Source: Candidatus Woesearchaeota archaeon
Lineage (GTDB): Archaea > Nanobdellota > Nanobdellia > SCGC-AAA011-G17 > UBA489
DNA length: 38,293 nt
NCBI GenBank assembly: GCA_016845225.1
Contig: JAERTB010000013.1
Span: forward strand, 1-38,293
Reading direction: 5' to 3'
The notes beneath the pieces were generated by a model. It did no database searches and was not told the origin of the DNA. It was given only the letters and a program-made list of their open reading frames with translations. Of this stretch, positions 11,813 through 17,530 are shown in pieces (positions within the stretch are counted from its first letter, which is position 1; each line of letters opens with the position of its first letter). The position numbers and the translations under genes are program-made.

Positions 11813-12217
11813 ATGGCAGAAGAAATCAAATGTATCTTAAATGATCCAAAAGAAGGAAAGAGCTATTCAAAAGCTATTGAAACAACCTTATTATCTGGAA
11901 GAAAAGTTGGAGAAACTATTCCAGGAAACCTTTTTGGATTAACAGGTTACGAATTTAAGATTTGTGGAGGAAGTGATTCAGCTGGATTCCCAATGAGACC
12001 AGAAATACCTACACACCATAGAAAAAGAATTCTTGTTCAAAACAGCATCGGAGCTAAAATTAAAAGAAAAGGAATGTACAAAAGAAAAACAGTTAGAGGA
12101 AACACAGTAAGTGAAAACACTGCACAGTTAAATTTAGCTGTTGAAAAATACGGAACAACTCCAATAAAAGATCTATTAGCTCCAAAAGAAGAAAAAACTG
12201 AAGAAACTAAAGAATAA
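11813..12217 (+). CDS. rps6e: Ribosomal protein S6e
   Basis: GRKVGETIPGNLFGLTGYEFKICGGSDSAGFPMRPEI...RKRKTVRGNTVSE-like sequence. Confidence 0.95.
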   Translation: MAEEIKCILNDPKEGKSYSKAIETTLLSGRKVGETIPGNLFGLTGYEFKICGGSDSAGFPMRPEIPTHHRKRILVQNSIGAKIKRKGMYKRKTVRGNTVSENTAQLNLAVEKYGTTPIKDLLAPKEEKTEETKE

Positions 12218-12219
12218 TT

Positions 12220-13254
12220 CTAATCAGAATCTTTAAAATTAATTTTTTTACGAATAGTCTTTTTCAAATCCTGCTTTTTTACTTTAGAGTCTTTAACCAT
12301 TTCTAACCAACTACAAAGAACTTTACTACTAACATCTGGCTCTTCTCTAATTGCTCTCCTAACTTCCTCTAATTTAATTTTATCTAATCTAACTGCTTCA
12401 AAATCAAATTTTTCTCCCTCATACAAATTTGCGTCTTGCTTAAGAGTTCTCTCAACATAAACAATATCGAAAGGGGGACCAATTGTACTTGTAGCTCTAG
12501 ATGTGGGGTCTGCCACCCTCAATAATGTTTCAATCCCTTCCAAGGTACTTAATTTTAATTTACCAGTCCTATTTAATCTATACTTATGTTCTCCCATAAA
12601 TGTTTCAAAAGGTGCAGAAGCAGATCCGGTAGATAATCTTTCCATCACATTATATTCTGGTTTTATAGTTCCGACACCGACCTTATAGATTACAGGTTTA
12701 GAGATATTTGAAATAACCATAATGTCTGGCCTTTCTCCAGCTGCATCATTGATTCGTGCCTTGTATTCTGCATCTAATGCCGGAGGTAATTTATTAGCTT
12801 CAAACAACCCTCTAAAATAATCTTCATCGTTAAAAAAATAGAGTAAAAATTCATCCATTACTTTTTCCAAATGTAAATCATTGTATGATTTTTTTATAAA
12901 TTTTTTAAAATCTTCTTCATTATCGAAATCATGTCCATACATCCTATCAGAAAGTTCATTTGCAAAATAAGGATCTCCTGCAATTCCAAAAAAAGCATGA
13001 CTATTAATATCTCTGATTTTAGTTTCTAAACTTCTTTGTTGACCAGTTCTTGGGATAATTCCCAAAGAATCTTGTAATAGAACTACAGAATTTTCATTTG
13101 GAATTAATCCAGCACATAATGTCAAAGAAGTAAGGTCATCTCCATCTTTACCTAAAACCATTGATTCATATTTTTTTATCAATTTAGGACGATAATCACT
13201 ATCTTTAGGAATAGTTCCAATCAATCTCCGTAATTCTTCAGGTTTATAAGACAT
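12220..13254 (-). CDS. Divergent proteasome-beta/HslV-like Ntn-hydrolase candidate
   Basis: By-eye alignment to proteasome beta: TLCAGLIPNENSVVLLQDS (T1...D17), KIRDINSHAFFGIAGD (K33 and the aGdaD region), VMERLSTGSASAPFETFM (GSGS, S129), RVADPTSRATSTIGPPFDIVYVER (D166xxS169). Confidence 0.6.
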   Translation of the reverse strand: MSYKPEELRRLIGTIPKDSDYRPKLIKKYESMVLGKDGDDLTSLTLCAGLIPNENSVVLLQDSLGIIPRTGQQRSLETKIRDINSHAFFGIAGDPYFANELSDRMYGHDFDNEEDFKKFIKKSYNDLHLEKVMDEFLLYFFNDEDYFRGLFEANKLPPALDAEYKARINDAAGERPDIMVISNISKPVIYKVGVGTIKPEYNVMERLSTGSASAPFETFMGEHKYRLNRTGKLKLSTLEGIETLLRVADPTSRATSTIGPPFDIVYVERTLKQDANLYEGEKFDFEAVRLDKIKLEEVRRAIREEPDVSSKVLCSWLEMVKDSKVKKQDLKKTIRKKINFKDSD

Positions 13255-13359
13255 ATACTCTAATACCTAGTTTTTACTATATAAGTCTTTCCAAGTATTT
13301 TATCTCTTAAACTTAAAAAAACCGCACAAAAACCCTTATAAAAGCAATTTGAATATAGC

Positions 13360-14604
13360 ATGAGTATGCCTACAACTAAAAAAACAAACAATCAACCAGA
13401 AATCAGTATTGGTCTAGTAGGTCATGTAGACCATGGAAAAACCACACTTACAGAACGTTTATCTGGTAAATGGACAGATACACATTTTGAAGAATTGAAG
13501 AGAGGAATCACAATTAAGTTAGGTTATGCAAACACTTCATTCTATAAATTCAAAAATAAAGAAACTAAAAAAACAGAGTACTGTGCCAAACCAGAAGGTC
13601 CAAATAAAGAAAAAACAGAATTAAGTCGAACGGTTTCTTTCATTGATGCACCAGGTCACGAATCTTTAATGGCTACAATGATTTCGGGGGCAGCAATTAT
13701 GGATGGAGCAATACTCCTTGTTGCAGCAAATGAAGAATGTCCTCAACCACAAACTGAAGAACATCTAATGGCTTTAGAAATTATTGGCTGTAAAAATATT
13801 ATAATTGCACAAAATAAAATAGACTTAGTAACAGAAAAAGAAGCAGTTGCAAATCATAAAAAAATAAAAGAATTCGTTAAAGGGACAATTGCAGAAAATG
13901 TGCCGATTATTCCAATCTCTGCTCAAAGAGATATTAACATTAACAAACTAATTGAAGCAATTGAAACTAAAGTTAAAACACCAAAAAGAGATACGAAAAA
14001 ATCCCCAATTATGTTTATAGCAAGAAGTTTTGATGTTAACAAGCCAGGAACAAAAATCAAATCATTGGCGGGCGGAGTTCTTGGAGGAGCACTTAAGGAA
14101 GGAACTTTAAAAGTGGGAGATGAGGTAGAAATTTTACCAGGAATTCCTACTCAAAAAGAAGGAAAAACAATTTGGGAACCAATCAACACAAAAGTAATTG
14201 GAATCAAAACAGGAAAAGACGATTTAAGTTCTGCTCATCCAGGAGGATCAATAGCAGTTCTAACTTCTTTAGATCCATTTTATGTTAAAGGGGATGCTTT
14301 AAGAGGAAACCTATTGGGAATAAAAAAGAAAATGCCTGAAATTTGGCATGAATTTACACTTAAATCAAATTTATTAAAAAGAGTAGTTGGAGAAAAAGAA
14401 GACGTACAAGCAATAAAATTGACAGAACCACTTATGCTTAATGTAAATTCATCAGCAACTATTGGCGTAGTAACTCAACTAAAAAAAGATAAAATTACAA
14501 TTAAACTAAAACTTCCAATCTGTTGCACAAAGGAAGATAAAATCACCATTTCTAGGACTATTGGAAATAGATGGAGACTAATTGGTTACGGAACAATTGA
14601 ATAG
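13360..14604 (+). CDS. eif2g: Translation initiation factor aIF2 subunit gamma
   Basis: IGLVGHVDHGKTTLTERLSGKWTDTHFEELKRGITIKLGYA, VSFIDAPGHESLMATMISGAAIMDGAILLVAANE, QNKIDLV. Confidence 0.96.
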   Translation: MSMPTTKKTNNQPEISIGLVGHVDHGKTTLTERLSGKWTDTHFEELKRGITIKLGYANTSFYKFKNKETKKTEYCAKPEGPNKEKTELSRTVSFIDAPGHESLMATMISGAAIMDGAILLVAANEECPQPQTEEHLMALEIIGCKNIIIAQNKIDLVTEKEAVANHKKIKEFVKGTIAENVPIIPISAQRDININKLIEAIETKVKTPKRDTKKSPIMFIARSFDVNKPGTKIKSLAGGVLGGALKEGTLKVGDEVEILPGIPTQKEGKTIWEPINTKVIGIKTGKDDLSSAHPGGSIAVLTSLDPFYVKGDALRGNLLGIKKKMPEIWHEFTLKSNLLKRVVGEKEDVQAIKLTEPLMLNVNSSATIGVVTQLKKDKITIKLKLPICCTKEDKITISRTIGNRWRLIGYGTIE

Positions 14605-14666: not shown

Positions 14667-15062
14667 GTGATTGATAGCGAATTTGATAAAAAAGTAAGAG
14701 CATATTCTAATTGGAAGAATAATCAGAATATTCAAAATAATTATCCGGCAAGGGAAAATTATTTAGATGGAATTTCTTGTGTTGCCGATGCAATGAAATC
14801 TTTAGGAAACCCATATGGATCAAAACCATTAGAAGAAATTCCGATAATAAAAAATCCACTAAGTTTAGATTATTTAACAGAAGGTCAAAAAGCAATGATA
14901 CATATTGGTTCAATATTAACAGATACAACTGATTTTCTAGAAGATATTATTAATGGAGATATAAGTGGTTTAGAAACAAACCATGAAGAAATAACAAAAA
15001 GTAAAAAGGTTATTGATGATATTTTAGATAAAATAAGAACTGCTTACATGGAAGATATTTAA
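14667..15062 (+). CDS. Hypothetical protein, 131 aa (GTG start)
   Basis: Intact ORF filling the interval between eif2g and the convergent gyrA; no recognisable family. Confidence 0.6.
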
Positions 15063-17530
15063 ATTTCTTCAGTGTTAATTTCTTCGGTTTCAACTTTCTC
15101 AACAATTTCATTAGTTTCAACTTCTTCAGATTCCTCAGATTTAACCTTAGCAACACTAACAACTCTATCTCCTGGCAGTAATTTCATAACCCTAACACCT
15201 TGGGTGTTTCTACCAATACAGCTAATATCTCCTGCCCTCATTCTAATCACAACGCCTTTCTCACTCATCAATATCAATTCATCTGAATCTTCAACAACCA
15301 CTGTACTAACAACCTTACCATTTCTAGGACTTGCAATTATATTTCTAACTCCTTTTCCTCCACGTTTAATCAACCTATAATCTTCTAATTTAGTTCTCTT
15401 ACCATATCCATTTTCAGTAATTGTAAAAATACATTCTCCTTCACTACACCTACTCATACCAACAACATAATCGTCAACTCCAAGCATAACTCCCCTAACA
15501 CCATAAGCAGTTCTTCCCATAGTCCTCACATCATCTTCTCTAAATTTAACTGCATTACCAGAATGAGTTGCAATAATGAATTGCTCACCTTCTCCACTTA
15601 ATTTAACACTAACTACATCATCTTCATCTTTCAAACCAATTGCTTTAATTCCGCCTTTCCTAGGTTTAGAAAATTCAGAAAGACTTGTTTTCTTAACAAT
15701 TCCTTTTTTGGTACAAATCATAACACTCCTATCTTTTTTAAATTCTTGAATTGGTAATACTGCATTAATTACTTCATCCTTATCCAATCTAAGTAAATTA
15801 ACGATTGCTTTACCTTTAGAATACCTACTTCCAACAGGTAATTGATAAGCTTTCAACCAATAAACTTTTCCTTTATTGCTAAAGAATAATAATTGATTCA
15901 AGTTAGAAGTTACAAAAATATCATTAACGAAATCCTCATCTTTCAAACCAGTCCCCTTAACCCCTTTTCCTCCTCTCTTTTGTACCTTATACACTTCCAA
16001 AGGCATTTGTTTAATATATCCAGAATTTGTAACATTAACTACAACTTTATCTTCTTTAATCAAATCTTCATATTCAATTGCTCCTTCTTCTTCACCAAGA
16101 GAAGTTCTTCTTTCATCACCATATAATTTTTTTATATTTTCTAATTCATCAACAATTATTCCATCAACCTTTGCAGAAGATTCTAAAATAGATTTTAATT
16201 CTTCAATTAAAACCAACAATTCTTCTCTCTCTTTCATTAATTTTTCAGTTTCTAAAGAAGTTAACTTTTGTAATTTCATTTCTAAAATTGCACTTGCTTG
16301 TTTCTCACTAAATTCATAAGTTTCAATTAAATTTTCTTTTGCAACCTTAACATTATCTGCCTTCTTAATAAGTTGTACAAGTGGATCAATCAAGTCTAAT
16401 GCTTTTTTCAATCCATTAAGAATATGTGCTCTTTCTTCTGATTTATTTAAATCAAATTTAGTTCTTCTAATTATTACTTCTCTTCGATGATTTACAAAAT
16501 GTTTAATCATTTCTTTCAAATTCATCACAGTAGGTTTTCCGTCATGTAATGATAAGAAAATAATTCCAAAAGTATTTTTCAAAGAAGTATGTTTTAATAA
16601 TAAATTTAATACCAAATCCGGATCTGCATTTTTCTTAAGTTCAACAGAAATTCTCATTCCACTTCTATCACTTTCATCTCTTAAATCAGAAATAAAAGGA
16701 ATTGTTCCATTTTTAACTAAATTAGCAATATTTTCTAACAATGTAGACTTATTCACCATATATGGAATTTCATGAATAATTATTTTATTATCCTCAAAAC
16801 TAGTTTTAGCTTTAACAATTACTTTTCCTCTACCCGTTCTATATGCCATCTTTGCACCAGAAGTGCCGCAAATAATTCCTCCAGTAGGAAAGTCTGGAGC
16901 CTTAATATGTTCAAATAAATCATTAAAACCAATATCGTTATTATTCAAATATGCGATTACTCCATCACAAACTTCAGATAAATTATGCGGAGGAATATTA
17001 GTTGCCATTCCTACAGCAATACCCGTACTTCCATTAATTAACAAGTTAGGAATTGCGGAAGGTAAAACTGTTGGCTCCTTTAAAGAATCATCAAAATTTG
17101 GCCTATAATTTACAGTTTGTTTTTCAATATCTTTTAATAATTCACTAGAAATTTTCTTCAATCTATTTTCAGTATATCTCATAGCTGCAGCACTATCTCC
17201 ATCAACACTACCGAAATTACCCTGTCCATCAACTAAAGGATATCTTAAACTAAAATCTTGAGCCATTCTAACCAAAGAATCATAAACAGCACTATCGCCA
17301 TGAGGGTGATACTTTCCTAAAACTTCTCCCACTACACGTGCACTTTTTTTGTAAGGTTTGTTGTGAAACATCCCCATCTTATGTAATGCATAAAGAATTC
17401 TTCTATGTACTGGTTTTAATCCATCCCTAACATCAGGCAAAGCTCTAGAAGTTATAACGGACATAGCATAGTCTACATAACTCTCCTTCATCTCATCTTC
17501 AATTAACCGAGGGATATAATCTTGAGTCAT
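15059..17530 (-). CDS. gyrA: DNA gyrase subunit A
   Basis: RPLIEDEM-type N-term, [30 protein letters not shown] (catalytic Tyr), GyrA-box [10 protein letters not shown] and beta-pinwheel repeats. Confidence 0.97.

What the first reader, a model, noticed from the sequence alone, without database searches (positions are those of the whole stretch)
12220..13254. Divergent proteasome-beta/HslV-like Ntn-hydrolase candidate outside the usual families
The 344-aa protein shows no obvious family at first, but by eye its core aligns with the 20S proteasome beta fold. 'T45-L-C-A-G-L-I-PNENS-VVLLQ-D62' matches 'T1TTVGI...VVLAAD17'. K79 in 'ETKIRDINSHAFFGIAGD' sits 17 residues after D62 (16 in proteasomes, D17-K33). 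'ERLSTGS211AS' matches the GSGS129 loop. 'RVAD249PTS252RAT' matches D166xxS169, with S211-D249 spacing 38 versus 37. So Thr/Ser nucleophile candidates (T45, or S43/T42), Asp, Lys, Ser, Asp and Ser are all retained. The roughly 44-aa N-terminal segment could be a propeptide. There is a long acidic insert before the IMVISN strand and a basic C-terminal extension of about 75 aa. The expected Gly(-1) is absent (Leu44), so autoprocessing would be atypical. The gene is not next to psmA. It may be a new self-compartmentalising protease branch or a derived inactive paralogue.
Basis: partly seen in the sequence, partly recalled or inferred. Interest (0 to 1): 0.82.

Follow-up and report, generated by a model that had tools for sequence, protein, structure and literature searches.

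The report
Rare DPANN proteasome-like enzyme with extension
A tiny archaeon (probably a Woesearchaeote) carries, besides its normal proteasome, a very divergent relative of the proteasome's cutting subunit whose predicted active threonine sits behind an extra 44-residue head that its distant cousins lack, so it would have to be unmasked by cleavage before it could work.

Summary
The ORF is real (minus strand, 13254 to 12220, 344 aa). Alone it matches no family, but five homologues, four of them distant, make the kinship testable. The family profile hits 20S beta subunits in the PDB (E 2.8e-5). HMM-HMM comparison with archaeal PsmB gives E 4e-9; reversed-sequence controls give 0.07 or more. Two modest-confidence AlphaFold models retrieve proteasome subunits in all 50 listed matches. 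Thr45, Asp62 and Lys79 (T1/D17/K33) are invariant in all six sequences; D249 and S252 are not. In the distant homologues the Thr follows the start Met. Only the window species and a sister species have the 44-aa N-terminal extension, and it is translated (dN/dS 0.145; Leu44 codon TTG versus CTT). A helical insertion after H2 and C-terminal helices resemble published PHI homologues. Best reading: a rare, divergent proteasome-like Thr enzyme, active only if cut at Leu44|Thr45; a silent regulatory form is the main rival. The published survey reports propeptides only in PsmB and HslV. New variant of a known kind; cleavage, oligomeric state and substrate are unknown.

The parts
12220..13254 (-). 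Gene for a divergent proteasome-like Ntn protein, 344 aa (P0001)
   Evidence: ORF and translation; homologues; HMM-HMM and PDB profile matches to PsmB; dN/dS 0.08
13123..13254 (-). N-terminal extension, residues 1-44 (two predicted helices, 5-14 and 22-34), lineage-specific; propeptide candidate
   Evidence: Absent from L006, L024, L007, L038, which start M-T; dN/dS 0.145; L44 codon TTG here, CTT in the sister species; helices from a low-confidence model
13120..13122 (-). Thr45 codon, predicted nucleophile (Thr1 equivalent)
   Evidence: Invariant in 6/6; HMM alignment puts it on the start M-T of the L003 family
13069..13071 (-). Asp62 codon (Asp17 equivalent)
   Evidence: Invariant in 6/6
13018..13020 (-). 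Lys79 codon (Lys33 equivalent)
   Evidence: Invariant in 6/6
12976..12978 (-). Gly93 codon (Gly47 oxyanion-hole equivalent)
   Evidence: 5/6, Lys in L007; K79-G93 spacing 14 as in K33-G47
12727..12843 (-). Helical insertion, about residues 138-176, between H2 and the next core strand (pore-loop site)
   Evidence: Predicted helices 144-153 and 158-171 (low confidence); extra relative to PsmB in the HMM alignment; dN/dS of 110-175 is 0.048
12622..12627 (-). Gly210-Ser211 codons (GS129-loop equivalent)
   Evidence: G 6/6, S 5/6
12223..12444 (-). C-terminal extension, residues 271-344, predicted mostly helical
   Evidence: Helices 292-304, 310-321, 327-342, pLDDT mostly 79-89; dN/dS 0.277, the least constrained part
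13277..13284 (-). TATA-box-like TTATATAG about 30 nt upstream of the ATG
   Evidence: A similar TTTATA element sits at the same distance in L005, L006, L024 and L038; suggests leaderless mRNA starting at the ATG (inference)

Best explanation
The gene encodes a member of a rare, divergent proteasome-like Ntn family of DPANN (Nanoarchaeia) archaea, distinct from the genome's own PsmA and PsmB. Predicted mechanism: Thr45 is the N-terminal nucleophile, Asp62 and Lys79 complete the T1/D17/K33 triad and Gly93 forms the oxyanion hole; an acyl-enzyme on Thr45 is resolved by water (peptidase) or by an amine (ligase). In the distant family members methionine aminopeptidase would expose the Thr, because the gene starts Met-Thr. 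In this genus a translated 44-residue extension blocks it, so activity requires cleavage at Leu44|Thr45, by itself or by another protease. The helical insertion at the pore-loop site and the C-terminal helices make a plain double barrel unlikely; a monomer, small oligomer or open ring is more likely. Shown: homology, conservation of T/D/K, constraint on the protein, a translated extension. Inferred: catalysis, cleavage of the extension, quaternary structure, substrate.
For: Homologues in other Nanoarchaeia: L006/L023 (28%), L024, L007/L025, L038. The profile of four members hits PDB 20S beta subunits over most of the core (5fmg_H 2.8e-5) and Thermoplasma PsmB at 0.02. L006 hits arc_protsome_B at 2.8e-5 and PF00227 at 6.6e-4, both below the curated cutoffs. 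HMM-HMM: family vs PsmB Prob 96, E 4e-9; vs the L003 paralogue family E 4.5e-8 over 202 columns from Thr1; reversed-sequence controls E 0.07 or more. AlphaFold model of L024: pTM 0.59, 207 PDB matches at E<=0.001, all 50 listed are proteasome subunits with probability 1.00; the window protein's own model gives the same class. Triad invariant in 6/6. dN/dS 0.034 in residues 45-270, 0.145 in the extension. Start sites supported by a TATA element about 30 nt before the ATG in five of six genes.
Against: The window protein and its 93% sister alone give no significant hit to any known family (win2 vs PsmB E 0.04); the case rests on the remote homologues. Structure models are of modest confidence (pLDDT 56 and 62) and Foldseek TM-scores are 0.2-0.56. 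Gly(-1), which precedes the cleavage site of proteasome beta propeptides, is Leu here. L007 lacks the Gly47 and Ser129 equivalents. D166/S169 equivalents are not conserved. No assay exists.
Confidence: 0.62

Rival explanations
1. The extension is never removed. The protein is a catalytically silent, alpha-subunit-like or regulatory proteasome-like protein whose N-terminal helices gate or cap something, as alpha-subunit N-terminal helices do.
For: No Gly(-1); two predicted helices in the extension; the extension is under selection (dN/dS 0.145), as a retained functional domain would be; alpha subunits carry extra N-terminal helices (PMC8665760).
Against: T45, D62, K79 and G93 are retained against homologues 24-29% identical. 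A cleaved propeptide can also be constrained.
Confidence: 0.22
2. It is a connectase-like protein ligase (transamidase), not a hydrolase: same Thr chemistry, monomeric, with inserted elements giving tight substrate specificity.
For: Thr/Asp/Lys triad, about 280-345 aa, insertion and C-terminal region, features that disfavour rings; connectase is the archaeal precedent (PMC8665760).
Against: Connectase lacks H1/H2 and has its helical pair between S3 and S4. Here H1 and H2 are predicted and there is no insertion between K79 and the GIAG strand. No connectase among the 50 listed Foldseek matches.
Confidence: 0.1
3. It forms a self-compartmentalising double ring, like HslV or BPH, acting as a protease, perhaps together with the L003-type paralogue.
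For: Beta-like fold. The L003-type gene (C11) is likewise found only in G000 and G002 of the five species in the genus.
Against: Insertion at the pore-loop site and C-terminal helices; the two species are close relatives, so co-occurrence counts as one event at most; L003-type genes occur without this family in G016, G019 and G034. No PAN-type unfoldase domain was found in this genome.
Confidence: 0.12
4. Not an Ntn hydrolase at all; the resemblance is chance.
For: No Pfam, NCBIfam or PDB hit for the single sequence at E<0.01.
Against: Profile, HMM-HMM with reversed controls, fold search and invariant triad all agree.
Confidence: 0.03

Closest known systems
[quoted passage not shown]
   Same: Beta-like core with T/D/K triad, long insertion after H1/H2 (pore-loop site), found in archaea and bacteria, C-terminal coiled-coil helix in some members
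   Different: Published homologues other than PsmB/HslV have no propeptide; this lineage has a 44-aa extension.
Archaeal 20S proteasome beta subunit (PsmB, TIGR03634)
   Same: Thr1/Asp17/Lys33 triad, GS loop, detectable homology by HMM (E 4e-9)
   Different: This genome has a separate PsmB; no Gly(-1); a helical insertion of about 40 residues and a C-terminal extension; no match above family cutoffs
Anbu
   Same: Met-Thr start as in the distant family members; GEHKY and D-x-T-x-R...G-x-P-[FL]-D-[IL] segments match weakly (E 0.67)
   Different: Family profile vs Anbu E about 0.1; the insertion is absent in Anbu
HslV / BPH
   Same: Ntn beta-like core
   Different: Both compact, without the insertion and C-terminal helices; vs E. 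coli HslV the best HMM E is 0.0013 (family without the window pair)
Connectase
   Same: Archaeal, Thr nucleophile, extra elements
   Different: Connectase lacks H1/H2 and inserts between S3 and S4; here the insertion follows H2
L003-type DPANN paralogue (this genome, contig C11)
   Same: Close relative by HMM (E 4.5e-8, 202 columns) and neighbouring branch in the tree
   Different: Shorter (232 aa), starts Met-Thr, matches PF00227 above cutoff

Membership tests
Proteasome-like (Ntn) family in the sense of PMC8665760 | Conserved Thr1, Asp17, Lys33 triad | tested here: met
   T45, D62, K79 invariant in 6/6
Proteasome-like (Ntn) family in the sense of PMC8665760 | Gly47 oxyanion hole | tested here: met
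   G93, K-to-G spacing 14; 5/6 in family
Proteasome-like (Ntn) family in the sense of PMC8665760 | Beta-sheet core S1-S11 flanked by helices | tested here: inconclusive
   All 50 listed fold-search matches are proteasome subunits, but the models have pLDDT 56-62
Proteasome-like (Ntn) family in the sense of PMC8665760 | Significant profile similarity to known members | tested here: met
   PDB 20S beta E 2.8e-5; PsmB HMM E 4e-9; needs the remote homologues
Archaeal proteasome beta (PsmB) | Score above TIGR03634 or PF00227 cutoff | tested here: not met
   No hit for P0001; L006 23.8 vs 224 bits and 19.8 vs 22.4 bits
Archaeal proteasome beta (PsmB) | Propeptide ending in Gly(-1) | tested here: not met
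   Leu44 in both species with an extension; other members have Met
PHI | Helical insertion after H1/H2 | tested here: met
   Predicted helices 144-153 and 158-171 after H2 (113-139); low-confidence model
PHI | Clusters with PHI sequences | not testable with these tools
Connectase | No H1/H2, helical pair between S3 and S4 | tested here: not met
   H1 and H2 predicted, no S3/S4 insertion
Anbu | Sequence similarity to the Anbu profile | tested here: inconclusive
   Window plus sister vs Anbu E 0.0011 (residues 220-308 only); whole family E 0.085-0.12
PMI | Insertion between H3 and H4 (PMI-2 to PMI-6) | tested here: not met
   Short H3/H4 link in alignment and model
Self-compartmentalising protease | Ring assembly and proteolysis | not testable with these tools
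   Needs expression and structure

The most novel reading that the evidence does not exclude
A propeptide evolved anew in a proteasome-like enzyme outside PsmB and HslV: within a Met-Thr family, one DPANN genus put a 44-residue head in front of the catalytic threonine and now activates it by cleavage after leucine rather than glycine, giving a switchable, probably non-barrel Thr enzyme beside the normal proteasome.
Probability: 0.33. Interest if true: 0.65.

Novelty: new variant of a known kind. Interest (0 to 1): 0.5.

Why it matters
The published survey of proteasome homologues says propeptides occur in most PsmB and HslV but in no other homologue. A natural pair of forms, with and without a head, in one small family would let one test whether a propeptide gates a proteasome-like Thr enzyme outside the barrel context, and whether Gly(-1) is needed for cleavage. 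It also adds to the proteasome-like repertoire of reduced genomes: this 0.68-Mb genome keeps four such genes (PsmA, PsmB, the L003 type and this one) with no PAN-type unfoldase domain detected.

Tried and rejected
1) Alternative start at Leu44 (TTG): rejected, because the sister species has CTT there, the extension evolves under constraint, and the TATA element sits about 30 nt before the upstream ATG. 2) Viral or plasmid origin: two scans of viral contigs found nothing; no phage hit and only a chance-level plasmid hit; PHROGs gave only chance-level hits for the family. 3) Anbu membership, suggested by the first PDB search: family-level E about 0.1, not supported. 4) Weak hits L008, L009, L018, L021, L022: unrelated proteins on inspection. 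Most other weak hits (L014-L017, L019, L020, L035-L037, L039-L041, L053) turned out to be PsmB-type genes on inspection, which itself supports homology. 5) Operon clue: neighbours differ between homologues, so no functional link was found. 7) Tree: the family separates from the rest with bootstrap 94, but the alignment is very divergent, so only the grouping is used. 8) Literature searches for the family in DPANN found nothing specific.

Full report
What is there. The window lies in a 679-kb genome of 28 contigs, 98% complete. The close relative found by the contig scan is labelled Candidatus Woesearchaeota (L026; its 22,455-base contig matches the G002 contig in length), so this is very probably a Woesearchaeote (inference). 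The ORF at 12220-13254 is on the minus strand, 344 aa. It stands alone between ribosomal protein S6e (11813-12217, +) and aIF2-gamma (13360-14604, +). In the three other species of the genus searched the gene is absent, and in two of them the slot between S6e and aIF2-gamma holds a HAD-type phosphatase gene instead. So it is an accessory gene.

Homologues. The single sequence hits no Pfam or NCBIfam family and only Anbu, at E 0.67, in the PDB. Among 99 related genomes only the sister species G002 matches, 93% identical. A search of 382 genomes of the phylum gave L006 (28%, E 3e-19) and L007 (E 2.8e-4). A scan of genome contigs added L024. A class-wide search with the profile gave L038, a distant member that also starts Met-Thr. 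The family is rare: a handful of genomes among the several hundred searched.

Why it is proteasome-like. A profile of four members hits 20S beta subunits in the PDB, best 2.8e-5, and Thermoplasma PsmB at 0.02. In genome searches the next hits after true members were mostly PsmB-type genes. HMM-HMM: family vs DPANN PsmB Prob 96, E 4e-9, while reversed PsmB and Anbu give 0.39 and 0.44. With the L003-type paralogue family E is 4.5e-8 over 202 columns, starting at the Met-Thr. AlphaFold models of the window protein (pLDDT 56, pTM 0.51) and of L024 (pLDDT 62, pTM 0.59) both show an N-terminal strand pair, H1-H2, extra helices, H3-H4, a late strand pair and a helical tail. The 50 Foldseek matches listed for each are all proteasome subunits. 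The models are not confident, so the fold claim rests on all lines together.

Active site. T45, D62 and K79 are invariant in 6/6, G90 and G210 too; G93 and S211 in 5/6. Three pre-named columns all falling in the invariant set has a chance of about 1e-4.

The extension. L006, L024, L007 and L038 begin Met-Thr at this position, so Met removal would expose the Thr (established rule for methionine aminopeptidase with a small second residue; own knowledge). For L007 an upstream in-frame ATG exists, but a GGGGGAAGAG stretch stands just before the Met-Thr start. The window species and its sister have 44 residues first. These are translated: 10 synonymous against 7 non-synonymous changes in 44 codons, dN/dS 0.145, and Leu44 is TTG in one and CTT in the other. 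A TATA element about 30 nt upstream of the ATG occurs in five of the six genes, which fits leaderless transcripts and supports the start codons as read (inference). [quoted passage not shown] Gly(-1) is absent; some other Ntn enzymes (acid ceramidase family, own knowledge) cleave after hydrophobic residues, so Leu does not exclude cleavage. Whether it is cut is unknown.

Mechanism and standing. Best reading: Thr45-dependent acyl transfer after removal of the head, outside an ordinary barrel (0.62 for the whole statement; proteasome-like homology itself about 0.95). [quoted passage not shown] PMI-3 and PMI-4 also have an H3/H4 insertion that is lacking here; connectase has its insertion elsewhere and lacks H1/H2 (PMC8665760). 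PHI is therefore the closest published architecture, but membership could not be tested by sequence. Rivals are listed with their refutations. The main open points are cleavage, oligomeric state and substrate.

Noticed in passing
L003:1399-2097 (- strand), contig C11 of the window's genome: A further proteasome-like gene (232 aa, starts Met-Thr, PF00227 28 bits); in the genus only G000 and G002 have it, and G016, G019 and G034 carry relatives, one (L059) with a long insertion after H1.
   Followed up: partly
window:17883-21191 (-): Bacterial-type GyrB carries an in-frame intein (Pfam Intein_splicing over 474-899) at the Toprim domain; GyrA lies at 15059-17530.
   Followed up: no
window:10753-11733 (-): Putative lipoprotein with trypsin-like motifs (VDHAG, DYALLV, GNSGSP) but no Pfam hit; counterparts in G001 and G004, absent from the slot in G003.
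   Followed up: no
window's genome (G000): No PAN-type proteasome ATPase OB domain (PF16450) found although PsmA and PsmB are present; the unfoldase partner is unclear.
   Followed up: partly
L038:1273-2166 (+): Very distant family member (297 aa, G273) next to a tRNA-dihydrouridine-synthase-like gene; a probable fragment of a relative in G509 (L052).
   Followed up: partly
L047 and L048, between S6e and aIF2-gamma: In sister species G001 and G004 the slot holds a HAD-type phosphatase gene instead of the proteasome-like gene: a variable site.
   Followed up: partly
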